Below are positions 1 through 57,718 of a DNA stretch of 57,718 nt, piece by piece; positions within the stretch are counted from its first letter, which is position 1, and each line of letters starts with the position of its first letter. A program made the position numbers and the translations under genes. The stretch is from a virus: IMG/VR virus record IMGVR_UViG_3300025769_000008, positions 1 to 57,718 of that record; one strand, given 5' to 3'. The notes under the pieces are model-generated. The model ran no database searches. It was not told the origin of the DNA and saw only the letters and a list, made by a program, of their open reading frames with translations.

Positions 1-36
1 AGATGGTGTTGATGCTGACTTAGTTGAGGGCATAGA
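1..36. repeat. Terminal overlap, left copy
   Basis: These 36 bases are identical to 57683-57718. Both copies lie in the same reading frame of one gene, so this is most simply the overlap of a circular assembly and not a packaged terminal repeat. It shows the genome is complete and that base 1 is an arbitrary cut. Confidence 0.95.
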
Positions 37-12393: not shown

Positions 12394-12896
12394 TGTGATA
12401 CCTCCTCATCTTCCCAAGGCAAACCCCTAGGGTATTTGCCAAAGGGAGGATTGAAACCAACAGGATAAACATACAGATGATATTGATCTGCGACATTCAC
12501 CAATTGACACTCAGGAGGGTATAACTCAACCGCCCACCTATCTTTTCCGTTTTCGCAAAGAGCATTTTTGATCTGTTGCAAGTCAGTCCAAGAACGAACA
12601 GGTTTTCTATCAAGTCTTTTGATAGATAGATATGCCATACCTAAACGACATAACTCATCATCATAAATTTCGTCAGTCTCCTTTCCAACGTAAACATAAA
12701 CTTGATAGGTATCATTCAAATAAACTTTGCATGAAGTTAGTCTGTTGTATTGCCTTTTAGCTTCCTCCCAAGAAAGGTTATAAGGATTCTTTTCCTGTAT
12801 GTCCTTTATCCTTTCTTTTATGGGCATATCTTCAGGGTACAAACTTCCTTCAACAAATTTATCCAAAGTTTTAGAACCTAGATTTCTATCAATCAT
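12390..12896 (-). CDS. Conserved phage protein, DUF7694-like (168 aa)
   Basis: Seen: SWTDLQQIKNALCENGKDRW followed by AVELYPPECQLVNVADQYHLYVYPVG, a pattern common in phage and prophage proteins (W.DLQ.IKN....E..AVELYP....LV...N.YHL.V). The N-terminal half is helical, with a second WEEAKRQYNRL segment. Function unknown. Coupled by a short overlap to the gene upstream. Confidence 0.7.
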   Translation of the reverse strand: MIDRNLGSKTLDKFVEGSLYPEDMPIKERIKDIQEKNPYNLSWEEAKRQYNRLTSCKVYLNDTYQVYVYVGKETDEIYDDELCRLGMAYLSIKRLDRKPVRSWTDLQQIKNALCENGKDRWAVELYPPECQLVNVADQYHLYVYPVGFNPPFGKYPRGLPWEDEEVSQ

Positions 12897-13243
12897 TTAG
12901 ACACCTCCAAGATTACTCTTTTCTCTTTACCTTTACCTTTCAAAGAAAAAGTAACAGTATCACCAACATCTGCTTGAGCCTTGATACCTTTAATAGATAT
13001 CCTCCTATCTGCTCTAGCATTTTTAGTCCTGTAACATTTGACGACTGTTTTAGTGCCATCCTCAAACTCAGCTTGAAAACTGTGCCAAGAACCACTCAAC
13101 ATATCATCAAAGAATACATCTTGAGTCTTAACAAACTCTCTAATGCTAGCATTAGCATCAATGATATGTTTGTTAAGCATTGTTTTAGTTAATTTAATAA
13201 CCGCATTGGTTTTTATAACCAACCATTCTTTTTCATTACTCAT
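12893..13243 (-). CDS. Hypothetical beta-rich protein (116 aa)
   Basis: The start at ATG 13243 is chosen because the upstream ATG (13255) is itself part of the GGAGG ribosome site. Beta-rich C-terminal half (GDTVTFSLKGKGKEKRVILEV) and a basic centre (KCYRTKNARADRRISIKG). No family recognised. Its mRNA leader carries hammerhead ribozyme A, so its transcript would be cut free of the VWA gene upstream. Confidence 0.65.
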   Translation of the reverse strand: MSNEKEWLVIKTNAVIKLTKTMLNKHIIDANASIREFVKTQDVFFDDMLSGSWHSFQAEFEDGTKTVVKCYRTKNARADRRISIKGIKAQADVGDTVTFSLKGKGKEKRVILEVSK

Positions 13244-13272
13244 AATTTCCTCCATTGTAAGTAATAGTTAGT

Positions 13273-13335
13273 AAAACTGATTTCAAGGATTTTTCCTCTC
13301 ATCAGGCAAAAACACACATTTTTGCTATCAGTTTT
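13273..13335 (-). ncRNA. Hammerhead ribozyme A (type III)
   Basis: Minus-strand order: stem III AAAACTGA; cleavage triplet AUA; stem I GCAAAAA-UGUGUG-UUUUUGC; core CUGAUGA; stem II GAGGA-AAAA-UCCUU; core GAAA; stem III UCAGUUUU. All conserved hammerhead core bases are present and all three stems pair. Predicted cut between 13326 and 13325, in the leader of 12893-13243 and 43 bases before its TAACTAAC-type leader and GGAGG. The downstream product would begin with a 5'-OH. Confidence 0.9.
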
Positions 13336-13376
13336 TAAAAATTGGCTTTCATAAGTCCAACCTAAGAGCGAAACTG

Positions 13377-13418
13377 AAGGTAAGTTAACCTAGGACACCT
13401 CCTAAATTAACCTACCTT
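13377..13418 (-). other. 19-bp hairpin directly upstream of ribozyme A
   Basis: Arms 13377-13395 and 13400-13418 pair along all 19 positions as minus-strand RNA, three of them G-U wobbles, around a GGUG loop. As plus-strand RNA those three become A-C mismatches, so the structure is specific to the leftward transcript. It lies 10 bases after the VWA gene stop. After ribozyme cleavage it would sit near the new 3' end and could block 3' exonucleases. Confidence 0.75.
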
Positions 13419-13428
13419 TAGAATCCAC

Positions 13429-14793
13429 TTATGCGTAGAAGTCAGCAGTATCAACGTAAACCACCTCACCAAAAGGAAGGTTTTCAGAGTAACGACTCTT
13501 ATCGGTTACGCACCACACTACAGGACACTCAGGCTCTTGCTCAGGCTCTACAGTTCCATATCCATCCGTAAAGTAAACAAAGGCTTGAACGTCTTCCACA
13601 TCATCAGACCATTCATTGAACAGATGAAAGGGAGGGTCAAAGGAAGTTCCACCCCCACCACGAACCTTGAGTTCTAGGTCTTCACCTTGATTAAGTTCGT
13701 AGATATCCCACCATTCACCTTGATCATTTTTCACTACTGTAGAAGCACAGTAGCAAACTCTAACCTTGTCCAATCCGCAGTCTTCAGCCATAGCTTGTAC
13801 TTCACTCGCAAACTGATCTAGTTCGTGTTGTGAAACACTTCCGCTAGTATCAACCGCAATAGCAAGTTCTCCTCCTTCAGGATTACGAACCTTGCTAGGT
13901 AAGTTGATACCTCTCCACGCATGACGTTTATTAAGTCTAGACCAAGAATAGTCATTGCAAGTCAACGACTGTAAGAAGTCATTCAACATATCTTTCCAAG
14001 ATATAGCTGATTCTTTCTCACTTTCAATGCCACCTTTCATATTAGAAGTACCGCTTCCAAATTGCTCTAGCTTGTCAGCTAGTGAAACTGCTCTTTGAAT
14101 CTCGCCTTTGAGTTCTTGCATTTCTGCTTCGTTCATTGGCTTGCCTTCTTCGTTAGTAGCATCCCAAACTTCTCCAATTGCGGAAGGAAGATTATCAAGA
14201 TCACTCGAAATTGATTTACCCCCCCTTGGGGAATCTTCATGATATTTTCCTTTACCAGTCAATGATTGATCTTCTCCTTGATCATCAGACTCAGAATCCC
14301 CCCCACCTTCGGAATCTTGCGACTCTTCAGGCTTGTGTTCTTCGTTGTCATTGTTGATCTGATCTACCGCATCTTGCAAGGCATCCTCATCTTTAATCAG
14401 ATGTTGATACACCTTCTCAGCAGTCCAACCTTTGTACTGATAATCAAGAAGACCGCCTGTTGGCAAAGTCATTCTTAGATCATAGTGAAGGTAGTTATTG
14501 ATTACATAATCGCAAGCAATATTCCAAACTTTAGGATGTCTCTTCCCTCTCCTTAAAGGATGTTCATAGACAACGTGTAAAGCTTCGTGGACAAGTACAC
14601 CTTGCAACTCTTCTTCGGTAACACCCTCAACAAAATCAGGAAAGAAATAAATCTTCTTTCCATCAGTTGCCATAGTGTCACACTTAGAAGAATCGACCTC
14701 CACTAATTCAAGGTGTAGGAGCATACTTGCCATACCTACATTGCCTTGCATTAGCTTTGATCTAGCCTTAATGATCTTATCTAAACTAGTCAT
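13429..14793 (-). CDS. VWA-domain protein with N-terminal HExxH (DUF2201-like, 454 aa)
   Basis: Seen: an N-terminal putative metallopeptidase-like region with VHEALHVV (His69, Glu70, His73) and HPKVWNIACDYVINN; an acidic, low-complexity linker (~150-200); and a C-terminal von Willebrand A domain with the MIDAS motif DTSGS (315-319), a GGGGTSF threonine motif and a YFTDG aspartate motif. Known: such proteins pair with MoxR AAA+ ATPases in chaperone or metal-insertion-like complexes. The partner ATPase is at 15925-16974. The start at ATG 14793 follows TTGGAGGTAAGAAAA. Confidence 0.85.
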   Translation of the reverse strand: MTSLDKIIKARSKLMQGNVGMASMLLHLELVEVDSSKCDTMATDGKKIYFFPDFVEGVTEEELQGVLVHEALHVVYEHPLRRGKRHPKVWNIACDYVINNYLHYDLRMTLPTGGLLDYQYKGWTAEKVYQHLIKDEDALQDAVDQINNDNEEHKPEESQDSEGGGDSESDDQGEDQSLTGKGKYHEDSPRGGKSISSDLDNLPSAIGEVWDATNEEGKPMNEAEMQELKGEIQRAVSLADKLEQFGSGTSNMKGGIESEKESAISWKDMLNDFLQSLTCNDYSWSRLNKRHAWRGINLPSKVRNPEGGELAIAVDTSGSVSQHELDQFASEVQAMAEDCGLDKVRVCYCASTVVKNDQGEWWDIYELNQGEDLELKVRGGGGTSFDPPFHLFNEWSDDVEDVQAFVYFTDGYGTVEPEQEPECPVVWCVTDKSRYSENLPFGEVVYVDTADFYA

Positions 14794-15769
14794 TTTTCTT
14801 ACCTCCAAAGGCACGTTCTAAGAACCCACCTTTAAGTCCATCAACAGACTGCTCAAGACCTTCAGCTACTTGCTTACGTTTTGATTCACCTAGTTCTGTA
14901 TCATCCCTTAGAGACTCCACAGAGTTGATAGAAGCAAGAACGCTTACAAGTTGTTGATGAGCATCAGAGATAGATTGATCATTGCCTAAGATATCTGAAT
15001 TAATAGAAGGAAGAGTTTCAACCGCCTGTCTCAATTTCTCGATACTGCTATTGTTGAAGAAACCCTTCTGTTTGTTTTCAGGGTCGTAGGCTTTTAGCTT
15101 CTCAGCTAAATGATCTACTTGAGAAACAAGTGCATCAACAGTAGTAACTAAAATGTTCTTAATGTTGGTGCTTGCTCTGTTTACTGCATCACTCTCTATC
15201 CTCTTTCTAAGTTCGTCAGATACATTTAATCTGATATCAGAACCAAAAGTTGGTAGCGGAGACATTTCAAACTGAAAGATAAATTTATCTCTCAGCCTTT
15301 GCAAATCCCAATCGTCAGTAGGGTAATCGTCTTCGTCAAACGCATCACCTAATCTGTCTTTTGCATTCGCAATGTCTAGAGGTAGTTGCTTGAAAAAACC
15401 TTCTACCTCTCTATCCCAAATCACTTTCGCTTGATTGACTTCGTACTGAAGCTTTTCAAGTTGTGAGTTAGGACACAATCGCCAACCACCGCCAACCTTG
15501 ACTCCGTTATCGTCTGAAGTATCAGACCAAGGCAAAGTAAGGGGATAGTAAAAGTCATTCCTAAACGCATTGATAATACTGCGAAACTCTTTGTTCACAT
15601 TCCTACCAAAGATATGCTTAGAAACATTTAACAAATCAGCATTAGATTTCACATCCTCTGCTAAATCATTTTTTAAACTCTTATCTGTTTTGATACCGCT
15701 CGGATGCCCTAGAGCAACACGAACCAAAGTAGCATTCTCAGATAGAGTTGTACTTAGTTTTTTATCCAT
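14786..15769 (-). CDS. Middle gene of the MoxR-VWA set (327 aa)
   Basis: A soluble, mostly helical protein with several long charged helices (LEKLQYEVNQAKVIWDREVE; ALVSQVDHLAEKLKAYDP). I do not recognise a catalytic motif. Its place between a MoxR ATPase and a VWA/DUF2201 protein resembles three-gene phage clusters in which the middle protein is a DUF3150-type partner; that assignment is tentative. It starts at ATG 15769 after TGGAGGTTCAATT and has ribozyme B in its leader. Overlaps the VWA gene by 8 bases. Confidence 0.7.
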   Translation of the reverse strand: MDKKLSTTLSENATLVRVALGHPSGIKTDKSLKNDLAEDVKSNADLLNVSKHIFGRNVNKEFRSIINAFRNDFYYPLTLPWSDTSDDNGVKVGGGWRLCPNSQLEKLQYEVNQAKVIWDREVEGFFKQLPLDIANAKDRLGDAFDEDDYPTDDWDLQRLRDKFIFQFEMSPLPTFGSDIRLNVSDELRKRIESDAVNRASTNIKNILVTTVDALVSQVDHLAEKLKAYDPENKQKGFFNNSSIEKLRQAVETLPSINSDILGNDQSISDAHQQLVSVLASINSVESLRDDTELGESKRKQVAEGLEQSVDGLKGGFLERAFGGKKND

Positions 15770-15797
15770 AATTGAACCTCCATTCAGTTAGATAAAG

Positions 15798-15857
15798 TTA
15801 TCTGATTTCATGCTTTTGCAATCATCAGTTGAGATAACACATCTCAATATCAGATAG
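15798..15857 (-). ncRNA. Hammerhead ribozyme B (type III)
   Basis: Minus-strand order: stem III UAUCUGA; triplet AUA; stem I UUGAGA-UGUGUUA-UCUCAA; core CUGAUGA; stem II UUGC-AAAA-GCAU (outermost pair U-U); core GAAA; stem III UCAGAUA. Predicted cut between 15848 and 15847, in the leader of the 327-aa gene. The stem I loop (UGUGU) and stem II loop (AAAA) match ribozymes A and D. Confidence 0.88.
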
Positions 15858-15864
15858 GCTTGAG

Positions 15865-15914
15865 GGGAGAAAAAGAACATTTACCAGTAAATAATAAATA
15901 TTTCTCTCTCTCCC
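15865..15914 (-). other. 13-bp hairpin upstream of ribozyme B, enclosing motif copy 8
   Basis: As minus-strand RNA, GGGAGAGAGAGAA (15914-15902) pairs with UUCUUUUUCUCCC (15877-15865) at all 13 positions, including two G-U wobbles that would be mismatches on the plus strand. A CCCG/CGGG hairpin overlaps its base just after the MoxR stop. The loop holds the palindrome ATTTACCAGTAAAT (15879-15892). Confidence 0.65.
15879..15903. promoter_or_regulatory. Recurrent ATTTACCAGTAAAT motif, copy 8
   Basis: Full palindromic copy followed by AATAAATATTT on plus, located between the MoxR and 327-aa genes. It may give the downstream genes their own promoter or operator. Confidence 0.45.
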
Positions 15915-15924
15915 GTCAGGCGGG

Positions 15925-16974
15925 TCAGACTTCTAAGTCAGAATTTTCTACCTTAAATTCTCCATAGGTAGAAGTATCTTTTAACTCAGGTCTCGCTCCA
16001 GTCACAGAACGCACAAAGAAGATTCCAAACTCAGGGGAAGGAAACTTATTTATGAAGTTGAGACTATTCTTAAAATGGCTTGTGACGTTGTTGTCATTCG
16101 CTTCTTTAATCACAGTCACTAATGCACAGATCGTAGCGTAGCAAATGCCCCCATGATCAGGAACATCTACTTCAAGACCTTCGACTATTCGGTCAAGATC
16201 AGGCACATCATTTTTAAGAGCTAAGAAAGACATAAATTCAATTGAAGCAGTCTCGCCAATATCACATTCACAAATCAATTGCTTCAGATCGTTGGAAGGA
16301 TTAGTCTTCAAAGTATCAGACAATCTTGTCCATGCTCTCGGTGAAGGCTGAGGAGTTTTGACTTTTGGGTCAAAGACATTCAACCACTCAGGCTGAAAGT
16401 TGATATAACCCAATACATCAGGATGCACATCATTATCAACCGCCCATTTCAACCAGTCATCCGTATTGTGTTCAAAGTTAATAATTGAACAACGACCAAC
16501 CACATGAGAAGGCAGAGCATTGCTACCCGCCCTGTCGGATGATCTGTTACCCGCACAGATAACTTTCCACCCTTCGGGCAAGATGTACTCGCCCAATCTT
16601 CTCTCGTAAATGATCTGTCCTACTATGGCTTGTACACTCGGATGAGCCTGTGCATATTCATCAAAGAATAAAACACCCTCACCACCAATCGGAAGATTAC
16701 CTAAGAAGGCTCGCTTCTGTTGGTTATCGTCACCAATATAAGGCAGACCACCAAGGTCAACGGATTCATAAAGAGATAGCCTAAAGTCAATCCACCCAAA
16801 CTGCTTCGCAGTTGGATTGATTTCATCTGAAACAATCTCTCTATCGTTAGCTAGTTCCTCCGCAAGTTGTTTAACAACCGCAGATTTACCAACACCAGTT
16901 CCTCCTAAGAGGAAGGGGGCATTGCCCCCATTTAATACAGACTTCATTATCTGTAATGCTTTACTAGGATACAT
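15925..16974 (-). CDS. MoxR-type AAA+ ATPase (349 aa)
   Basis: Role: ATP-driven remodelling chaperone, usually paired with a VWA protein. Seen: Walker A LLGGTGVGKS (ending Ser31), Walker B VLFFDEYAQA (Asp105, Glu106), a sensor-1 region CAGNRSSD and an arginine-bearing PSHVVGRC segment, all in AAA_5/MoxR order. The start at ATG 16974 follows ATGGAGGTTCTT; the upstream in-frame ATG (16986) overlaps that site. Ribozyme C lies immediately upstream. Partner candidates are the genes at 14786-15769 and 13429-14793. Confidence 0.9.
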   Translation of the reverse strand: MYPSKALQIMKSVLNGGNAPFLLGGTGVGKSAVVKQLAEELANDREIVSDEINPTAKQFGWIDFRLSLYESVDLGGLPYIGDDNQQKRAFLGNLPIGGEGVLFFDEYAQAHPSVQAIVGQIIYERRLGEYILPEGWKVICAGNRSSDRAGSNALPSHVVGRCSIINFEHNTDDWLKWAVDNDVHPDVLGYINFQPEWLNVFDPKVKTPQPSPRAWTRLSDTLKTNPSNDLKQLICECDIGETASIEFMSFLALKNDVPDLDRIVEGLEVDVPDHGGICYATICALVTVIKEANDNNVTSHFKNSLNFINKFPSPEFGIFFVRSVTGARPELKDTSTYGEFKVENSDLEV

Positions 16975-17023
16975 AAGAACCTCCATTCTATTTATCTAGT
17001 TAATGTTGCTAGCACCACGCTAG

Positions 17024-17087
17024 CACCTATACGAACCCAACCAAAGTTAAGTTCGTTTCATAGCATTTCAGCTAATCATCAGTAGGC
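17024..17087 (-). ncRNA. Hammerhead ribozyme C (type I, overlapping a stop codon)
   Basis: Circularly permuted relative to the others. Minus-strand order: stem I GCCUA; core CUGAUGA; stem II UAGC-UGAAAU-GCUA flanked by U-U; core GAAA; stem III CGAACUUAAC-UUUG-GUUGGGUUCG (10 bp with two G-U); triplet GUA; stem I UAGGU. Predicted cut between 17030 and 17029. The UGA stop of the gene at 17079-17264 lies inside the CUGAUGA core, so coding and ribozyme sequences overlap. A GCTAGC/GCTAGC hairpin follows toward the MoxR start. Confidence 0.88.
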
Positions 17088-17264
17088 TTTCTCAGGTATG
17101 AAAGGAACGACTTCCAACTCATACCCAAGGCTCTCGATTACCGCAACGTGGTAATCATTAAAAGTCTTTGATCTTGTCAGCTTTGCTAACTTCTCAGCAG
17201 TATCGCAAACAGGATAAAGAAGGTAATTCCCAAACACATTTTTCCAAACGACTTTAATCTTCAT
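17079..17264 (-). CDS. Small hypothetical protein (61 aa)
   Basis: Begins MKIKVVWKNVFGNYLLYPVC and ends VVPFIPEKAY; alpha/beta, no family recognised. It starts directly after the stop of the gene upstream (TAAATG). Its last codons and stop form stem I and the first core segment of ribozyme C, an unusual constraint on its C-terminus. Confidence 0.65.
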   Translation of the reverse strand: MKIKVVWKNVFGNYLLYPVCDTAEKLAKLTRSKTFNDYHVAVIESLGYELEVVPFIPEKAY

Positions 17265-17606
17265 TTAGACCTCCACCTTAGTGAAATACCATTGATCAGA
17301 ATCAATAGGCATTTGAGTATTATCTATATGGTCAACAAGGTAAGTCTGTCCTTTGATTTTACTTAAAGACATTTTGCCCTCAAACACATCTAGAACCGCA
17401 TTGATTCTCGCTCTAGTTGTTGGAGTATCCCAACCGCATAAAGTGAATTGAACCAATGTTGAATCCTTGAGGTTTCCTTCAGGCATGATTCTCACAATCT
17501 GATTACCATGCAACCAAACACCTTCACTTGTAACAACAGTATTACCGCCTTTAAAATCCTTAGATTCATAAAGAGCAACCGCACAATTTTTATCTATATT
17601 TCTCAT
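17265..17606 (-). CDS. Conserved phage hypothetical protein (113 aa)
   Basis: Beta-rich small protein with FTLCGWDTPTTRARINAVLD, a pattern (GW.T.TTR.R.N) seen in many phage hypothetical proteins, and a C-terminal DSDQWYFTKVEV. No function known. Leader: ribozyme D, then TAACTAATAACTAACTATGG and GGAGG before the ATG at 17606. Confidence 0.7.
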   Translation of the reverse strand: MRNIDKNCAVALYESKDFKGGNTVVTSEGVWLHGNQIVRIMPEGNLKDSTLVQFTLCGWDTPTTRARINAVLDVFEGKMSLSKIKGQTYLVDHIDNTQMPIDSDQWYFTKVEV

Positions 17607-17637
17607 AGTTTTCTAACCTCCATAGTTAGTTATTAGT

Positions 17638-17692
17638 TATCTGTTTCATCCTTTTGGAATCGTCAGCCAAGGTACACACCTTGATACAGATA
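17638..17692 (-). ncRNA. Hammerhead ribozyme D (type III)
   Basis: Minus-strand order: stem III UAUCUG; triplet GUA; stem I UCAAGG-UGUGUA-CCUUGG; core CUGACGA; stem II UUCC-AAAA-GGAU (outermost U-U); core GAAA; stem III CAGAUA. Predicted cut between 17685 and 17684, in the leader of 17265-17606. The C at core position 7 is allowed in hammerheads. Loops I and II match A and B. Confidence 0.9.
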
Positions 17693-17715
17693 GGGGATAC
17701 TTATTAGGCATCCCC
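17693..17715 (-). other. Hairpin directly upstream of ribozyme D
   Basis: As minus-strand RNA, GGGGAUGC (17715-17708) pairs with GUAUCCCC (17700-17693), 8 bp with one G-U, loop CUAAUAA. It abuts stem III of ribozyme D and lies just after the stop of 17723-18103. Same hairpin-then-ribozyme order as at A and B. Confidence 0.65.
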
Positions 17716-17722
17716 CACTTTT

Positions 17723-18103
17723 TTATTGATCTAATCTCTTTCCTCTGAAGTGATTCTCATCTTCTTCAATCAGAGCATGAATGTCTGCATTAGCCATATC
17801 CATGACATTCTGAAAACCTACGCTTCCTACTCTGTAGATGTCTCCGTTAAAGATCATCCTATCACCTACAGAAGTAGACCTATATTCAGCACCTCTAACA
17901 AAGGTAGATACACTAGAATTCTTAGTCCAAGACTCTTCTATGTTTTGAGTCTGTGCATAAGCAAATTCTAAAGCTTCAGTACCTTCACGCTCTCCCACAT
18001 TTACAAGACCAACGACTTCAGGTTTATCGAAAGTTTTACGACCTCCAAAGTCTTCAGTCATTAAAAATGCAGTATGGATAACAGTTATAAGATTTATTTT
18101 CAT
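17723..18103 (-). CDS. Hypothetical protein (126 aa)
   Basis: First coding gene of the ribozyme operon. Beta-rich with NGDIYRVGSVGFQNVMDMAN and an acidic end; no family recognised. Leader: ribozyme E, then TTAACTAACTTAATTCG and TGGAGGATTAAAACA before the ATG at 18103. Confidence 0.65.
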   Translation of the reverse strand: MKINLITVIHTAFLMTEDFGGRKTFDKPEVVGLVNVGEREGTEALEFAYAQTQNIEESWTKNSSVSTFVRGAEYRSTSVGDRMIFNGDIYRVGSVGFQNVMDMANADIHALIEEDENHFRGKRLDQ

Positions 18104-18138
18104 TGTTTTAATCCTCCACGAATTAAGTTAGTTAATTT

Positions 18139-18188
18139 ACTGTTTCTGCTTTCGCTTCATTCAGGCTAGATACACATCTAGCGACAGT
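18139..18188 (-). ncRNA. Hammerhead-like ribozyme E (type III, variant core)
   Basis: Minus-strand order: stem III ACUG; triplet GUC; stem I GCUAGA-UGUGUA-UCUAGC; core CUGAAUGA (one extra A compared with CUGANGA); stem II GC-GAAA-GC flanked by A-A; core GAAA; stem III CAGU. Stem I and its loop are like ribozyme D. The inserted A and the 2-bp stem II may weaken or abolish cleavage. Predicted cut, if active, between 18183 and 18182. Confidence 0.68.
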
Positions 18189-18190
18189 TG

Positions 18191-18481
18191 GAGGACTGTC
18201 CTCAAAGTTTCGGAATATGTCTCTTTAATGTTTCGTTCCAATTAGGTATCTCTCGATAGCTAAACGACATACTCGTTCCCTTTGAGTTGTATGAGTCTTG
18301 CTTCTTCGGTTATCTTGCACCTAACCTTTACACTCTCTCACACTAGCCACTTTCTTAGGCGGATTCAGTTGCGACCTTCACTATATTTGAACCTAATCGC
18401 ATCCTACTTCTAGAACCTTCAATCTCTCGTGAGACTGGCAGACCTTTTAAGGAGGGTGACTCGTTTGCTCCGTAGGAGCAA
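18191..18481. ncRNA. Hairpin-rich non-coding block, possible structured RNA
   Basis: No reading frame is supported in 18189-18592. Hairpins seen: GAGGA/TCCTC (18191-18203), TATC/GATA (18247-18258), GACATACTC paired with bulges to GAGTTGTATGAGTC (18266-18297), GGTTA/TAACC (18308-18326), GGAT..GCGA/TCGCATCC (18361-18404), TCTC/GAGA (18423-18434), CCTT/AAGG (18443-18452), TTGCTCC-GTA-GGAGCAA (18465-18481). By eye it is less AT-rich than flanking sequence. If transcribed leftward, ribozyme E would form its 3' end. I could not match it to tRNA, tmRNA or RNase P. Confidence 0.5.
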
Positions 18482-18549
18482 TCTTAACACAGAAGCACAT
18501 CATTGCAAATCATATTAGCTAGCAGACTGTGAGCATACCCAAATACTCC

Positions 18550-18565
18550 TTACTGGTAGATAATA
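18550..18565 (+). promoter_or_regulatory. Recurrent TTACTGGTA motif, copy 9
   Basis: TTACTGGTAGATAATAAT lies 43 bases before the terS ATG, followed by a related TTAACAGGTAATA and the AGGAGAACAGAACC ribosome site. It is a plausible late promoter or operator element. Confidence 0.4.
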
Positions 18566-18592
18566 ATTAACAGGTAATAGGAGAACAGAACC

Positions 18593-32424: not shown

Positions 32425-35400
32425 ATGGCAAGCACATACGTAAATAACTTAAGACTCAACGAAATGGCGACAGGTGATGCGTCAGGAACTTGGGGTACAG
32501 TTACAAATACAAATTTAGAGTTGATTGGTGAAGCATTTGGTTACAATACGCAAGATTGCTTTAGTTCTGACGCAGACGCTACTACAACTGTAGCAGACGG
32601 AGCTACTGATCCAGCTAGAGCCTTCTATTTTAAGGTTACTTCATCAGCTACTTTAAGTGCTACAAGAACACTTACTATTGCCCCTAATACTGTATCCAGG
32701 GTAATGGTTATTGAGAACGCAACTACAGGTTCGCAATCTATTAACATTTCTCAAGGTTCAGGTGCTAACGTAACAATAACTACAGGGCAAGTTAGAGTTG
32801 TATACCTAGATGGTGCTGGTTCAGGTGCTGCGGTAGTAGACTCGTTTACAGATTTAGGTTTGTCAGGAACAACCACAACAGCTGCACTAACTGTTAGTGG
32901 AAACTTATCCGTAGACGGCGGAACAATCAAACTAGACGGAAACTATCCTACTGGCACAGGTAACGTAGCTTTGGGTGATACTGCACTAGGTGATGGGTCG
33001 TTGAGTGGTGCTAATAATACTGCTGTAGGTAATGCAGTATTATCATCTAATACATCAGGTAATCAAAATACTGGTGTTGGCTACAATTCATTAGCTGACT
33101 GTACTACTGCTACTGCAAGTACAGCAATTGGTACTGGCTCATTAAAAGGAGTGACCACAGGCGCAAACAATACAGGTCTTGGTTATCATGCAGGTAATGA
33201 TATTACTACAGGAGCAAAAAATACTTTTGTAGGTTCTCTGTCTGGTGATGCAACTACAACAGCAGACGATAATACGGGGATAGGTGTTAGTGCTTTAGGA
33301 GCAAATACCACAGGCGCTTCAAATACTGCGGTAGGAAGTTCTGCGTTACAAAATAATACGACAGCTTCAAACAATACAGCAATTGGTTTTACAGCTTTAT
33401 TAGCAAACACTACAGGGGAATACAACACAGCAGTTGGTTCTTTATCATCAGATTCAATTACCACAGGAAGTCTTAACACAGCTATTGGGTACTACACTTT
33501 AGCAGCAGCTACAACAGCATCAAACAATACTGCTCTAGGTGGTCAAGCATTGGCAGTTAATACATCTGGTTCTAGCAATACAGCAGTTGGAATGAACTCT
33601 TTGGTAGCAAACACTACAGGTGGTTCAAACGTAGCAGTAGGCGCAACTGCCTTAGATGCAAATACGACTGCATCAGGTAATAATGCGGTTGGAATGGCAG
33701 CTTTAGGAGCAAACACTACAGGTGCTTCAAATGTTGCAATGGGGCAACAATCCTTAACAACAAACACTACAGGTAGTAATAACACAGCCATAGGTCACGT
33801 TGCTCTCGGAGATAATACAACAGCATCTGACAATACTGCTATGGGTTATCTTGCTTTAAATGCAAACCAAACAGGAGACAGAAATACTGCTGTAGGCTCA
33901 ACTGCCCTTGATGCTTTAACAGCGGCAAACTACAACGTAGCTGTTGGTTGGACATCACTTGGAGCAACTACAACAGGTGCTAATAATGTTGCATTGGGTT
34001 CGTTTGCTCTTCAGACTAATACTACTGCAAATAATAATGTTGCTGTAGGATATGCAGCTCTTCAGGCTAACGCTACAGGAACACAAAACACAGCAATTGG
34101 ACACGAGTCTTTGTATAACAGCACAGTAAACGATAACACAGCAGTTGGCTATCATGCTATGAGAGCTACCACTACTGGAAGAATTAATGCTGCTTTTGGA
34201 TATAACGCTTTAGGTTCTAATACAACAGGTGGAGATAATACTGCTGTTGGTGGTGCGTCTTTAGATGCAAATACTACGGGTAGTTCTAATACAGGAGTAG
34301 GCTACGCAACTTTATCAGCAAATACAACAGCAAGTAATAACACCGCAGTTGGTCATTTGGCTTTGCTTAATAACACTACAGGGACAGAAAACGTGGCTGT
34401 TGGTGCTTTAGCGGGGGATGCAATTACAACTGGTTCTTACAGTACGGCTATAGGTTATATAGCTTTATCTGCCGCTACTACAGCCAGCGATAATACAGCC
34501 GTAGGTCGTGAGGCTTTAAGAGATACAACATCAGGTGATGATAACGTAGCCGTAGGTAAAGAAGCTGGAAAACTTAATACAACAGGGTCAGGCAATACGG
34601 CAGTTGGTAATCATGCTTTCAATGTAAATACAACAGGTTCTAATAATACCGCCATTGGCTCTAGTGCTTTAGACGCTAACACTACAGCAAGCGATAACAC
34701 AGCAGTAGGTAATGCGGCACTAGGATCAAACACTACAGGAGCAGACAATACTGCTGTGGGTAAAAGTGCTTTAACGGGCAATACTTCTGGTAGTTTCAAT
34801 ACGGCTGTAGGTTATCAGGCTATGTCTACATCAAGTGCGGGTCCTGCACGAAATGTTGCTGTGGGTTATCAGGCGGGTACGGCACTTACAAATGGTGCGT
34901 ATAATACTTTTGTAGGAATGTTTGCAGGTAATGATGCAACGACCGCGGGAGGATGTCTAGCTATTGGATATAACATGGGAGTCACAGCGGGAGGTTCAGT
35001 AAGAGGAGCTATTGGTTATAACAATGGCTCAACAGGAACAGCAGATTATGCCATAACCTTTGGTAGAAGTGGTACTGACTGGTCAAGACTTTCTTATGGG
35101 GGTTCTAGTTTTACTACTGGTTCTGATGAACGCAAGAAAAAAGATATTACAGACCATCCGCTAGGTTTAGATTTTATTAATCAATTAAGAACTGTTAATT
35201 ATCATTTTAAAGCCCCTTGTGATGTTCCTGAAGAATGGGATACCCATAAAGCATCTGAAAAAGAAGCAAAAATAACCACATGGCAAACAGGTATGTTGGC
35301 ACAAGATGTTAAAGCAGCACTTGACAATCTTGGCGTTGATGCTGAGAAATTTAATGGTTGGGGTCAAGAACCTGATGGTATGCAAACACTAGATTATGGT

Positions 35401-35493
35401 CAATTTGTTATGCCACTTGTAAAAGCAGTAAAAGAACTTTCTGCTAAACTTACAGCAGCAGAAGCAAGAATAACAACTTTAGAAGGAGAATAA
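32425..35493 (+). CDS. Tail fibre with YadA-like head repeats and S74 chaperone domain (1022 aa)
   Basis: Role: receptor-binding fibre. Seen: an N-terminal tail-attachment region (YVNNLRLNEMATGDASGTWG), then about 30 repeats of the N-N/D-T-A-V/I-G type (about residues 170-870), as in trimeric beta-roll heads of adhesins; then a C-terminal peptidase S74 intramolecular chaperone starting about residue 900 (GSDERKKKDITDHPLGLDFI) with the autocleavage Ser, ending in coiled coil. The S74 domain trimerises the fibre and cuts itself off. Repeat DNA is near-identical in places, so copy number may vary. Confidence 0.92.
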   Translation: MASTYVNNLRLNEMATGDASGTWGTVTNTNLELIGEAFGYNTQDCFSSDADATTTVADGATDPARAFYFKVTSSATLSATRTLTIAPNTVSRVMVIENATTGSQSINISQGSGANVTITTGQVRVVYLDGAGSGAAVVDSFTDLGLSGTTTTAALTVSGNLSVDGGTIKLDGNYPTGTGNVALGDTALGDGSLSGANNTAVGNAVLSSNTSGNQNTGVGYNSLADCTTATASTAIGTGSLKGVTTGANNTGLGYHAGNDITTGAKNTFVGSLSGDATTTADDNTGIGVSALGANTTGASNTAVGSSALQNNTTASNNTAIGFTALLANTTGEYNTAVGSLSSDSITTGSLNTAIGYYTLAAATTASNNTALGGQALAVNTSGSSNTAVGMNSLVANTTGGSNVAVGATALDANTTASGNNAVGMAALGANTTGASNVAMGQQSLTTNTTGSNNTAIGHVALGDNTTASDNTAMGYLALNANQTGDRNTAVGSTALDALTAANYNVAVGWTSLGATTTGANNVALGSFALQTNTTANNNVAVGYAALQANATGTQNTAIGHESLYNSTVNDNTAVGYHAMRATTTGRINAAFGYNALGSNTTGGDNTAVGGASLDANTTGSSNTGVGYATLSANTTASNNTAVGHLALLNNTTGTENVAVGALAGDAITTGSYSTAIGYIALSAATTASDNTAVGREALRDTTSGDDNVAVGKEAGKLNTTGSGNTAVGNHAFNVNTTGSNNTAIGSSALDANTTASDNTAVGNAALGSNTTGADNTAVGKSALTGNTSGSFNTAVGYQAMSTSSAGPARNVAVGYQAGTALTNGAYNTFVGMFAGNDATTAGGCLAIGYNMGVTAGGSVRGAIGYNNGSTGTADYAITFGRSGTDWSRLSYGGSSFTTGSDERKKKDITDHPLGLDFINQLRTVNYHFKAPCDVPEEWDTHKASEKEAKITTWQTGMLAQDVKAALDNLGVDAEKFNGWGQEPDGMQTLDYGQFVMPLVKAVKELSAKLTAAEARITTLEGE

Positions 35494-55900: not shown

Positions 55901-57718
55901 AGAACAAAGAGAAGCAGCATTACCTGAAGCTGCTAGAGTCATTACTGGCGATCCTATAGTTACTACACAAGAACTATCTAAGTTACAAAGACTACCTATA
56001 CCTGAACCATTACCTGAACCTATTATAGAACCAGACCCAACTGAACCTGACCCTGACCCTGCTCCAGCTCCAGCTCCTGTTGAAACAGCAACACCATATG
56101 ATGTGCGTAAATTAAGCGGACAAGAATATGATAGTGACAGATTATTAATTACTAATGGTTTATTAAATAGTAAAGCAATAATTAAAGCTGGAAGTAATAG
56201 ACAAAAAGGATTTTATAAAGGTGATTCTGTCAAAATGATGAAATGGCTAAAAGACAATTCGCCTAATGAAGATTACAGAATTATAGCCTCTAAAACTTAT
56301 GAGACATTATTAAAGTTACAGAAAAAAGGTTTTAATTTTCCTTTAGAGTTTTCAAGTCGTTCTTTAGGTGGTGCAAGTGGACAAGTAGAATTACGTTTAT
56401 TTGATCGTACTACTATGCCAATGAAAATTAATAACTCTCAACAAAGTATAAATGATAGTAAATCACTTGGTGGAATGAATACTAATGGTGTTAATTTTGA
56501 AACACTATTACATGAAGCCATACATCAAGCAACTCTTACTACAGTCCGAGATTTTAATCTTTACATACAAGGTAAAAAATTACCCAAAGATTTAAGAGCA
56601 CCAGTTAAATTAAGTAAAAAAGCAATTAAAGCTTCAGAAGATTTAGAAAATGTTCAAGATAAAGTTAATGAATATATAAAAGAAAAAAAAGATTATTACA
56701 CAAAAGTTGGTGCAGAGTTAAAGCGTTTTTATGATATTGCAATGGAAGCAAGCACTAAAGAAATAACAGAAACTGCATATGATGAATTTAAAAGATTAAG
56801 AAATGAATATAGAACAGAAGTTAAAAAAGAATCTTCAACAATAAAAAAATTAGCAGCAACTCTTGTAGATAATCAATTTCCAACAAATGAAAGAGTTATA
56901 AAAGGTGTGGAAGGAAGTTATCTATCTTGGAAAAAATATTACCAAGATTATAAAGTTAATGGAGGATTTGCAGAAAAGGATTTATCTGAATTTATAACAT
57001 TTGGTTTAACCAATAGAGAGTTTCAAGAATTTTTAGAATCTATACCTTATAAAACTAAAAATGCTTGGAGTGAGTTTGTACAGTCTATAAGAAATATATT
57101 AGGTTTACCTGCAAAATCTAATACAGCTTTATCTGCATTTTTACAAAGTGCAAGTGATATTGTTGAAACAGGAGCACAAACAACAAGAATAGGTAAAACT
57201 GATACTGAGTTAATTGATACTGTTGATTTTGCTAATAAATCAATTGATGAAAATAGCAAAGAAGGTTTAGAGTTAAAACTTAGAGATTTAGAAACTCAAC
57301 TTTACAATGCTGAACGTATTGAAGCTGATGGAAGAGGTAGAGTTTCAGAAAGAATAGCTAAACAAGATAGAGACCGAATAAATAGAATTAAAAATGAAAT
57401 TCAAAGTATTCAAAACGAATTAGCACAATCTACTTTACCTGAACAACTACCTTTATTTTCTGAAGGAACAAGATTCCAAGGTGACAATAAAACATCTGAA
57501 CAAGTAAAACTTAAAAGGTCTGTAGAAGAGGTAGAGGAGCTAGTAAGACAGACTCCTAGGGGTGGAGTACCCTATTACAATTTAAATGCCTCAGACGTGG
57601 CTATAGACGCTGCATTAGAGTTTAATAAAGACCTTTCATCTGTAGCTCCTAACGATATACCTCTTTGGTCTGCACCTAGCTTAGATGGTGTTGATGCTGA
57701 CTTAGTTGAGGGCATAGA
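52998..57718 (+). CDS. Giant polyvalent virion protein, N-terminal part (continues at base 1; 2,512 aa total)
   Basis: Starts in a TAATG overlap with the previous gene and stays open to the window end. Seen: several Gly/Ala hydrophobic segments in residues 50-260 that may insert in a membrane; a first zincin motif HEMIH (810-814) in VLDHEMIHALRAKDL; a Glu/Pro-rich linker (about 1004-1030); a second zincin motif HEAIH (1172-1176) in ETLLHEAIHQATL; and charged helical regions. Known: polyvalent phage proteins combine peptidase, enzyme and LPD domains and are injected with DNA to protect it or reprogramme the cell. Inferred: two metallopeptidase domains, perhaps self-processing. The rest is annotated at 1-2854. 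Confidence 0.85.
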   Translation, partial: MSVYKAPDGSKYNIPTEPLQRKRFVDAVKNKYGEDLDQTSTLDQAIEFGKAIPRGAASLALSVPTGIVSLFDIGDDSAALKGLRGLEKSLREDSALAADPRYADKFSTKLGEGIGSFVPFLGAAKVGSTLAKAGAVGQKTGQYGVPAALAIPTGMSAQADRINMAREMGEDVGGLTETTATLLGGAIGITEILPVAHIFSKVSKAAPKSVKEQLVSALKSGAFEGGQEVGASILQDLTARGLYSEELPIGESLFDEFTIGGIIGAGADLVVTSMGKKGIKDYHAEEKARRETLNKQELLKTKKVELGLEQGTIPEFQEPTQIDVPNIPAPESIQDPLNLDYVENADGSFAILDLNQPANPIISTAPTQAAAVTGIEKLKTKQNNALLKNQLDNMLYLQGNVNSAAAFELGQTLLDPIATTVTANDIAVNNSRLKDTGKKNFVDQNKNKTFSMPEAKKLLTKKDFNTMTESMAQAVFKQSEKSGEPSLTAGKQKLNTTPKFLKSMLASKNIDPDSIISPAFQHAAEVFTGTSQISSMTKGQKELLLARIHAMPKFNNKISFPEFRNREYSAKDMADFVANIGKTEFTIDNVKDFLTQRYTGKKAKYHKGNFEDNSFLAIQEADTFLRDLKDSGRAELQEDFVTYKIRDNFEFDIARRAESFGQTPEEFRAKLEAENKLPQEIIDQLVESERVKQEKLLPPEEVEPKVINYREAVEEGRTNKFAKEAQRILNERGLKDTGVVISNELLSASTLRQVKDNELIYDPRAVKDRGILGEYDKQSDIIFLSLNRINPDGNLTESDIQQKLNRVLDHEMIHALRAKDLINEREYNYLRNQVKSKKVPESFDSNFKNKSFYQRSVSINSATLEGRELTEEKREEFFVEEAIAEMFKAREDIKNMPPKSQGIFNKIVDFFKGMGEAMRLSGYQNVSDIFTDIEQGRVGARARGEIRTTRELDTGEARRGLGELADDIEQREAALPEAARVITGDPIVTTQELSKLQRLPIPEPLPEPIIEPDPTEPDPDPAPAPAPVETATPYDVRKLSGQEYDSDRLLITNGLLNSKAIIKAGSNRQKGFYKGDSVKMMKWLKDNSPNEDYRIIASKTYETLLKLQKKGFNFPLEFSSRSLGGASGQVELRLFDRTTMPMKINNSQQSINDSKSLGGMNTNGVNFETLLHEAIHQATLTTVRDFNLYIQGKKLPKDLRAPVKLSKKAIKASEDLENVQDKVNEYIKEKKDYYTKVGAELKRFYDIAMEASTKEITETAYDEFKRLRNEYRTEVKKESSTIKKLAATLVDNQFPTNERVIKGVEGSYLSWKKYYQDYKVNGGFAEKDLSEFITFGLTNREFQEFLESIPYKTKNAWSEFVQSIRNILGLPAKSNTALSAFLQSASDIVETGAQTTRIGKTDTELIDTVDFANKSIDENSKEGLELKLRDLETQLYNAERIEADGRGRVSERIAKQDRDRINRIKNEIQSIQNELAQSTLPEQLPLFSEGTRFQGDNKTSEQVKLKRSVEEVEELVRQTPRGGVPYYNLNASDVAIDAALEFNKDLSSVAPNDIPLWSAPSLDGVDADLVEGI
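57683..57718. repeat. Terminal overlap, right copy
   Basis: Identical to bases 1-36; joining them keeps the giant gene in frame (start 52998, stop 2854). Unit genome length 57,682 bp. Confidence 0.95.

What the first reader, a model, noticed from the sequence alone, without database searches (positions are those of the whole stretch)
12893..18188. Operon with five serial hammerhead ribozymes, one in every intergenic gap
On the leftward strand, each of the gaps at 13244-13428, 15770-15924, 16975-17078 and 17607-17722, plus the leader of the first gene (18104-18188), contains a sequence that folds as a hammerhead: cores CUGANGA and GAAA, three pairing stems and an NUH triplet (AUA, AUA, GUA, GUA, GUC). 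Gaps without room (overlapping genes) have none. Hammerheads are known in phages and metagenomes, but a series that would cut a polycistronic message into nearly single-gene pieces is, as far as I know, not a standard arrangement. It implies post-transcriptional separation of the MoxR, 327-aa, VWA and small genes.
Basis: partly seen in the sequence, partly recalled or inferred. Interest (0 to 1): 0.96.

Follow-up and report, generated by a model that had tools for sequence, protein, structure and literature searches.

The report
Ribozyme-punctuated phage operon
A marine phage operon carries a self-cutting RNA (a hammerhead ribozyme) at nearly every gene boundary, and over a hundred related phages keep this layout while sequences and genes change, which suggests that the phage cuts its own long message into separate, end-protected mRNAs.

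Summary
The minus strand of 12.9-18.2 kb has five hammerhead-ribozyme motifs, four type III and one type I, in the leader and in every real gap of a MoxR/VWA operon, and none elsewhere in 57.7 kb. Rfam passes none at its cut-offs, but covariance models built only from other phages find all five (E 7e-17 to 8e-8). In 122 related contigs there are 322-402 hammerheads on the operon strand, 0-1 on the other, and 0-3 in shuffles. Stems covary. In 150 model hits the catalytic core is invariant except free N7, and H17 is never G.

New anatomy: most cut sites are bracketed by hairpins, one from the ribozyme and one from the flank. Ribozymes persist at junctions where neighbouring genes are unrelated (45 families in 100 contigs before MoxR).

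Best reading: serial self-cleavage of a polycistronic phage message into end-protected mRNAs, which also makes the slots tolerant of gene exchange. Clustered phage hammerheads, and the processing idea, were published in 2011 (PMC3088659), so this is a new variant of a known kind. Cleavage itself is untested.

The parts
18139..18188 (-). HHR-1, type III, leader of the first gene; NUH = GUC, predicted cut between 18183 and 18182; variant core CUGA-A-UGA; stem II of 2 bp with A.A at 10.1-11.1
   Evidence: descriptor; model R1 38.5 bits, E 8e-8; several close relatives have CUGAUGA at this position
17638..17692 (-). HHR-2, type III, between 126-aa and 113-aa genes; NUH = GUA, predicted cut 17685|17684
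   Evidence: R1 71.2 bits, E 7.5e-17; RF00008 30.6 bits, E 3.2e-6, below Rfam cut-off
17025..17087 (-). HHR-3, type I, between 61-aa gene and MoxR; NUH = GUA, predicted cut 17030|17029; core contains the UGA stop of the 61-aa gene
   Evidence: R2 41.4 bits, E 7.9e-9; MFE fold is the hammerhead, z -4.3
15799..15856 (-). HHR-4, type III, between MoxR and 327-aa gene; NUH = AUA, predicted cut 15848|15847
   Evidence: R1 71.4 bits, E 7e-17
13273..13335 (-). HHR-5, type III, after VWA gene; NUH = AUA, predicted cut 13326|13325
   Evidence: R1 47.5 bits, E 2.7e-10
   Evidence: fold -11.9 kcal/mol, z -2.4; CUAAUAA hairpins abut hammerheads in relatives
15858..15921 (-). long hairpin before HHR-4: predicted 3' end cap of MoxR mRNA; its apex holds the repeated palindrome TATTATTTACTGGTAA (15881-15896)
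   Evidence: fold -29.6 kcal/mol, z -7.4; motif
   Evidence: fold -25.8 kcal/mol, z -6.2
17007..17025 (-). hairpin just after the HHR-3 cut: predicted 5' cap of MoxR mRNA
   Evidence: fold -10.5 kcal/mol, z -1.95
18183..18200 (-). hairpin GACAGU-CCUCCA-ACUGUC whose 3' arm is also the 5' strand of HHR-1 stem III; loop CCUCC is complementary to the GGAGG ribosome-binding site
   Evidence: sequence; fold -5.8 kcal/mol
18189..18592 (-). about 400-nt non-coding leader and divergent promoter region, with blocks conserved across relatives
   Evidence: blastn
17723..18103 (-). 126-aa gene, no named family
17265..17606 (-). 113-aa gene, Pfam Kyano_Gp96 (PF23790)
17079..17264 (-). 61-aa gene, no match
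15925..16974 (-). MoxR-type AAA+ ATPase (PF07728, phrog_1297)
14786..15769 (-). 327-aa gene, overlapping VWA; no named family here
13429..14814 (-). DUF2201 metallopeptidase-like + VWA protein (PF13203/PF09967)
12893..13255 (-). 120-aa gene, first gene after HHR-5

Best explanation
The five motifs are cis-acting hammerhead ribozymes that cut the operon transcript as it is made. Shown by sequence: ribozyme fold and core, covariation, position at gene boundaries, and hairpins around most cut sites. Inferred: cleavage in the cell and its effect. The predicted products are a free leader RNA and mRNAs for the 126-aa gene (18182-17685), the 113+61-aa genes (17684-17030), MoxR (17029-15848), 327-aa+VWA (15847-13326), and the 120-aa gene onward. 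Each new mRNA starts with a 5'-OH and, as a rule, a 5' hairpin. For type III this is the ribozyme's own stem I, and the cut lies about 80 nt before the start codon. For type I it is usually an added hairpin. Most upstream products end in a 3' hairpin plus a 2',3'-cyclic phosphate; for type I that hairpin is stem III, for type III a separate hairpin. Capped ends would slow RNase E-type and 3'-exonuclease decay and would free each gene's stability and translation from its neighbours. This also explains why boundary slots accept many unrelated genes.
For: Exactly five descriptor hits in the window. Independent models: E <= 8e-8 for all five. In 122 contigs: strict 322 same strand, 0 opposite, shuffles 0-1; relaxed 402 vs 1, shuffles 0-3, present in 121 of 122. 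Covariation: type III 100 double-side changes vs 27.2 +/- 4.8 in shuffles, type I 48 vs 13.1 +/- 2.5. In 150 type III model hits C3 U4 G5 A6 G8 A9 G12 A13 A14 are 150/150, N7 takes all four bases, H17 is A/C/U and never G, loop I UGUG nearly invariant. All 215 model hits lie on the operon strand. In 17 long records the hits lie within one gene cluster. Operon gaps of at least 80 nt: 295/373 with a hammerhead, and the misses inspected mostly hold one with an elaborated stem II; other same-strand gaps 14/230. Flanking hairpins: type III upstream median z -2.40 (59% below -2), type I downstream -1.82 (48%), controls -0.41 and -0.50 (18%, 12%). Type I abuts or overlaps the upstream stop in 107/117; type III cut-to-start 74-86 nt. 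Types swap at one junction: before MoxR I 85/III 2, before the 327-aa gene III 60/I 6.
Against: No cleavage or transcript data. No Rfam gathering hit in the window or in 13 related loci. HHR-1 carries an A6 insertion known to lower activity. In AUA-type copies the core CUGAU can also pair with the stem III 3' strand, and this inactive fold is the MFE for HHR-4 and HHR-5. A palindromic element inside the MoxR-327 gap could be a promoter, so the operon may not be one transcript. Flanking hairpins are a majority trend, not universal. A phage with a homologous MoxR/VWA operon (Synechococcus phage MinM2) shows no hammerhead, so the ribozymes are not needed for these genes. Many contigs are close relatives, so counts are not independent.
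Confidence: 0.8

Rival explanations
1. Natural insulators rather than message splitters: each gene or pair has its own promoter, and the ribozyme only trims a variable 5' leader so every mRNA begins with the same hairpin (as in the synthetic RiboJ part).
For: Nearly every hammerhead sits before a ribosome-binding site, type III cut-to-start 74-86 nt; one precedes the first gene; a palindromic element lies before the first gene and in the MoxR-327 gap.
Against: That element is in only one internal gap of the operon at full match; no excess of sigma-70-like promoters; 3' hairpins upstream of the cut would be pointless if nothing upstream were on the same RNA.
Confidence: 0.12
2. The motifs are kept mainly as recombination joints for gene cassettes (homology at gene boundaries), with self-cleavage secondary.
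For: Slot before MoxR holds 45 gene families in 100 contigs, after VWA 23 in 72. L004, L005, L006 and L008 have ribozyme - different gene - ribozyme before MoxR; the window and L003/L018 look like products of crossovers within the two ribozymes.
Against: Homology alone would conserve sequence; instead stems change in compensated pairs, N7 drifts, the core stays fixed and type I and III replace each other. Invariant core junctions such as MoxR-327 keep ribozymes too.
Confidence: 0.05
3. The ribozymes cut and re-ligate to make circular or spliced RNAs, or chiefly to release the about 400-nt leader as a separate RNA.
For: Serial ribozymes can in principle give circles; the leader is long, partly conserved and ends in a hammerhead.
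Against: Perreault et al. looked for spliced or circular products from tandem hammerheads and found none (PMC3088659). The leader fold is not more stable than shuffles (z -0.62). It does not explain the internal copies.
Confidence: 0.03

Closest known systems
Clustered hammerheads in prophages (Perreault et al. 2011, PMC3088659)
   Same: Several hammerheads flank single genes or short blocks in phage DNA; processing into gene-length mRNAs proposed; three tandem sets active in vitro and one in E. coli.
   Different: There the gene identities are not constant. Here one operon in over 100 related contigs has a ribozyme at nearly every boundary, with hairpins around most cuts. Their final filter discarded mispaired 10.1-11.1, which would drop many of these.
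Rfam Hammerhead_3 (RF00008) and Hammerhead_1 (RF00163)
   Same: Fold, core and cut-site rules; best copy 30.6 bits to RF00008.
   Different: No copy reaches the cut-offs (48.5 and 34 bits); U10.1.U11.1 stem II in many copies.
RiboJ insulator (sTRSV hammerhead + 23-nt hairpin; PMC6206723)
   Same: Hammerhead cut, then a 5' hairpin, then ribosome-binding site; raised mRNA level in E. coli, stability suggested.
   Different: Engineered single part at the promoter; here natural, serial, and paired with 3' hairpins for the upstream mRNA.
Halovirus HF2-type leader hammerhead (in PMC3088659)
   Same: Phage leader hammerhead; mapped 5' end of the transcript within 3 nt of the cut site.
   Different: Single ribozyme, variant core, archaeal host.
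Theta (HDV-like) ribozymes of gut phages (PMC10879173)
   Same: Self-cleaving ribozymes in phage genomes.
   Different: Other ribozyme class, linked to tRNA-based recoding.

Membership tests
hammerhead ribozyme | three helices around a core C3 U4 G5 A6 N7 G8 A9 / G12 A13 A14 | tested here: met
   four copies exact, HHR-1 with one inserted A; 150/150 at all fixed positions in relatives
hammerhead ribozyme | N7 free, H17 not G, A15.1-U16.1 pair | tested here: met
   N7 T103 C34 A8 G5; H17 A82 C61 T7 G0; 148/150 A-U, the other two U-A, a natural variant reported still to cleave
hammerhead ribozyme | stems maintained by compensatory change | tested here: met
   far above shuffles and slid controls
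hammerhead ribozyme | standard first pair of stem II (10.1-11.1) | tested here: inconclusive
   U.U in most type III relatives; natural U.U variants and activity of this mismatch reported (PMC3088659)
hammerhead ribozyme | stem I / stem II loop contact | tested here: inconclusive
   loop I UGUGU and loop II RAAA nearly invariant, like the sTRSV UGUGCUU loop from memory; contact itself not modelled
hammerhead ribozyme | Mg2+-dependent self-cleavage giving 5'-OH and 2',3'-cyclic phosphate | not testable with these tools
   needs in vitro transcription
Rfam RF00008 / RF00163 | score at or above gathering cut-off | tested here: not met
clustered phage hammerheads (PMC3088659) | several hammerheads flanking genes on one strand of a phage genome | tested here: met
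clustered phage hammerheads (PMC3088659) | tandem self-cleavage of the natural polycistronic RNA | not testable with these tools
   shown there for other loci, not here

The most novel reading that the evidence does not exclude
A ribozyme-punctuated operon: a gene-cassette format in which each unit carries a self-cleaving ribozyme, end-capping hairpins and its own ribosome-binding site. Genes can then be inserted, swapped or lost at ribozyme joints without disturbing their neighbours' expression, so ribozymes serve both as message separators and as recombination boundaries.
Probability: 0.4. Interest if true: 0.92.

Novelty: new variant of a known kind. Interest (0 to 1): 0.82.

Why it matters
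What bacterial and phage hammerheads do has been open since they were found. Here the same gene junctions keep self-cleavage motifs across a large phage group while sequence, ribozyme type and neighbouring genes turn over, which points to self-cleavage at gene boundaries as the selected function. The layout makes clear predictions for mRNA ends and half-lives that ordinary E. coli reporter constructs can test. The copies fall below Rfam cut-offs, so hundreds of such ribozymes may be missing from annotation.

Tried and rejected
Chance or generic hairpins: rejected. Rfam as arbiter: its models do not reach cut-off even for the best copies, so new models were built from other phages. Hammerheads as an inherent part of MoxR/VWA operons: rejected, MinM2 has the operon and no hit, while other phages have arrays with other genes. 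Upstream hairpins as intrinsic terminators: none of the terminator-like sites found on the minus strand lies in these gaps. A general anti-Shine-Dalgarno switch: CCUCC occurs within 25 nt of only 7 of 402 relaxed hits, so at most a leader feature. A structured leader RNA: fold z only -0.62. Bacterial genome collection with the MoxR alignment: no relative. Named phages by blastn with one hammerhead: only chance-level hits.
Full report
What was claimed and whether it is there. All five are present, with the stated triplets. A mechanical hammerhead descriptor finds these five and nothing else in the window; 188 of 200 shuffled windows give none and 12 give one. Four are type III (stem III open) and one is type I (stem I open). 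HHR-1 has CUGAAUGA, one A more than the consensus. Stem II opens with U.U in three copies, A.A in one and G.U in one.

Why Rfam is silent. At gathering thresholds Rfam reports nothing in the window or in 13 related loci. RF00008 gives 30.6 bits (E 3.2e-6) to HHR-2, against a cut-off of 48.5. RF00163 gives nothing meaningful. Perreault et al. 2011 removed candidates with a mispaired 10.1-11.1, so copies of this kind were filtered from their final alignments. They also note that the U.U mismatch occurs naturally and supports more activity than other mismatches, and that an insertion after A6 lowers activity.

Independent test. MoxR and VWA proteins pulled about 120 related IMG/VR contigs. From these, leaving the window out, I aligned 19 type III copies (A5) and 15 type I copies (A6) and built models R1 and R2. 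R1 finds the four type III copies at E 7e-17, 7.5e-17, 2.7e-10 and 8e-8. R2 finds the type I copy at 7.9e-9. The next window hits have E > 0.6. Covariation is strong: A5 has 100 cells changed on both sides against 27.2 +/- 4.8 in shuffles, A6 48 against 13.1 +/- 2.5, and slid structures collapse. In 150 hits from a search of 100 loci, chosen by the model and not by the core motif, the nine fixed catalytic positions are invariant, N7 takes all four bases and H17 is never G. The model was itself built from intact copies, so this favours intact hits to some degree. Two hits carry U15.1-A16.1, a natural variant reported still to cleave.

How general it is. Over 122 dereplicated contigs (1.34 Mb), the strict descriptor finds 322 hammerheads on the operon strand and none on the other; shuffles give 0-1. 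A relaxed one finds 402 against 1, shuffles 0-3; only one contig has none, and R1 finds hits in that contig too (L077). There are 242 distinct sequences. In 17 records of 36-60 kb the hits lie within one gene cluster. Of operon gaps of at least 80 nt, 295 of 373 hold a hit. The misses I read mostly hold a hammerhead with a longer or branched stem II. Same-strand gaps elsewhere: 14 of 230. The 327-aa and VWA genes overlap in most contigs and then have no ribozyme; where a gap exists, 17 of 20 have one. Before MoxR the ribozyme is type I in 85 and type III in 2; before the 327-aa gene it is type III in 60 and type I in 6. What persists at a junction is a self-cleavage motif, not a sequence.

Anatomy of a junction. 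Type I copies start at or overlap the upstream stop codon (107 of 117 within 15 nt). Type III copies lie a median 64 nt after the stop, with the cut 74-86 nt before the next start codon. The type III upstream space tends to hold a hairpin: median z -2.40, against -0.41 for other intergenic gaps and -0.50 for coding DNA. The 45 nt after a type I cut also tend to hold one: median z -1.82. So the hairpin that each permutation lacks is usually supplied by the flank. In the window, hairpins before HHR-2, HHR-4 and HHR-5 and after HHR-3 fold at -11.9, -29.6, -25.8 and -10.5 kcal/mol. One recurrent hairpin has a CUAAUAA loop and abuts stem III. After cleavage most mRNAs would carry a hairpin at both ends. 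That each end slows decay is inference from general knowledge of E. coli RNA decay and from RiboJ, where a post-cleavage 5' hairpin goes with higher mRNA levels (PMC6206723).

Gene turnover. MoxR, 327-aa and VWA proteins are one family each, but the gene before MoxR falls into 45 families in 100 contigs and the gene after VWA into 23 in 72 (families by blastp on small proteins with a simple gene caller, so an upper estimate). L004, L005, L006 and L008 have two type I ribozymes around different small genes before MoxR. The window has only the second ribozyme, joined at GCCTACTGATGA. L003 and L018 have the catalytic part of the first with the leader of the second. This fits crossovers at ribozymes but is not proof.

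Wider context. The window has an exact 36-bp terminal direct repeat, so the genome is probably complete. The nearest named phages by terminase are Pelagibacter phage HTVC027P (58.9%) and similar 57-62 kb phages. None of the five examined has a hit in the stretch read, including MinM2, which has a homologous MoxR/VWA operon. DNA patterns find the same hammerhead class in other phages, for example three around an AAA_5 ATPase/CobT-like operon next to a terminase (L167) and five in L176.

Verdict. Hammerhead identity is near certain from sequence (about 0.97). Serial message splitting with end protection is the best explanation (0.8) but untested. The kind of arrangement, and the processing idea, date from 2011 (PMC3088659). 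The density, conservation, hairpin pairing and link to gene exchange are, as far as the held literature shows, new. Literature limits: open-licence PMC only, no preprints.

Noticed in passing
relatives of the window, types I and III: The cut-site base and the first stem II pair are coupled. U10.1.U11.1 goes with A17 (67 of 68 type III, 18 of 18 type I), while in type I a G-C pair goes mostly with C17 (52 of 58). It holds in both permutations, but shared ancestry is not removed.
   Followed up: partly
window 1-36 and 57683-57718: Exact 36-bp terminal direct repeat, suggesting a complete genome although the record is classed linear.
   Followed up: partly
window 15881-15896, 18550-18565 (-) and weaker copies: Repeated palindromic element TATTATYTACYRGTAA, 9 matches against 1.5 expected; perhaps a phage promoter or operator.
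   Followed up: no
window 18183-18200 (-): Hairpin with a CCUCC loop shares an arm with HHR-1 stem III, so it could compete with the ribozyme and, if uncut, pair with the GGAGG start site.
   Followed up: partly
window 18189-18592 (-): About 400 nt of non-coding leader with conserved blocks; no stable fold beyond shuffles.
   Followed up: partly
L167 5214-8993, L161: Another phage type with three hammerheads around an AAA_5 ATPase and a weakly CobT-like 663-aa protein, next to a divergent terminase.
   Followed up: partly
L176 9221-12077: Five type III hammerheads in a phage that encodes a DNA polymerase III alpha-like protein; no MoxR operon in the part held.
   Followed up: no
window 32425-35493 (+): 1022-aa structural or tail-spike-like protein with many 51-nt (17-aa) repeats.
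   Followed up: no
window 15799-15856 and 13273-13335 (-): In AUA-type copies the core CUGAU and stem III 5' strand CUGAU compete for the same AUCAG; the MFE is the inactive fold.
   Followed up: no
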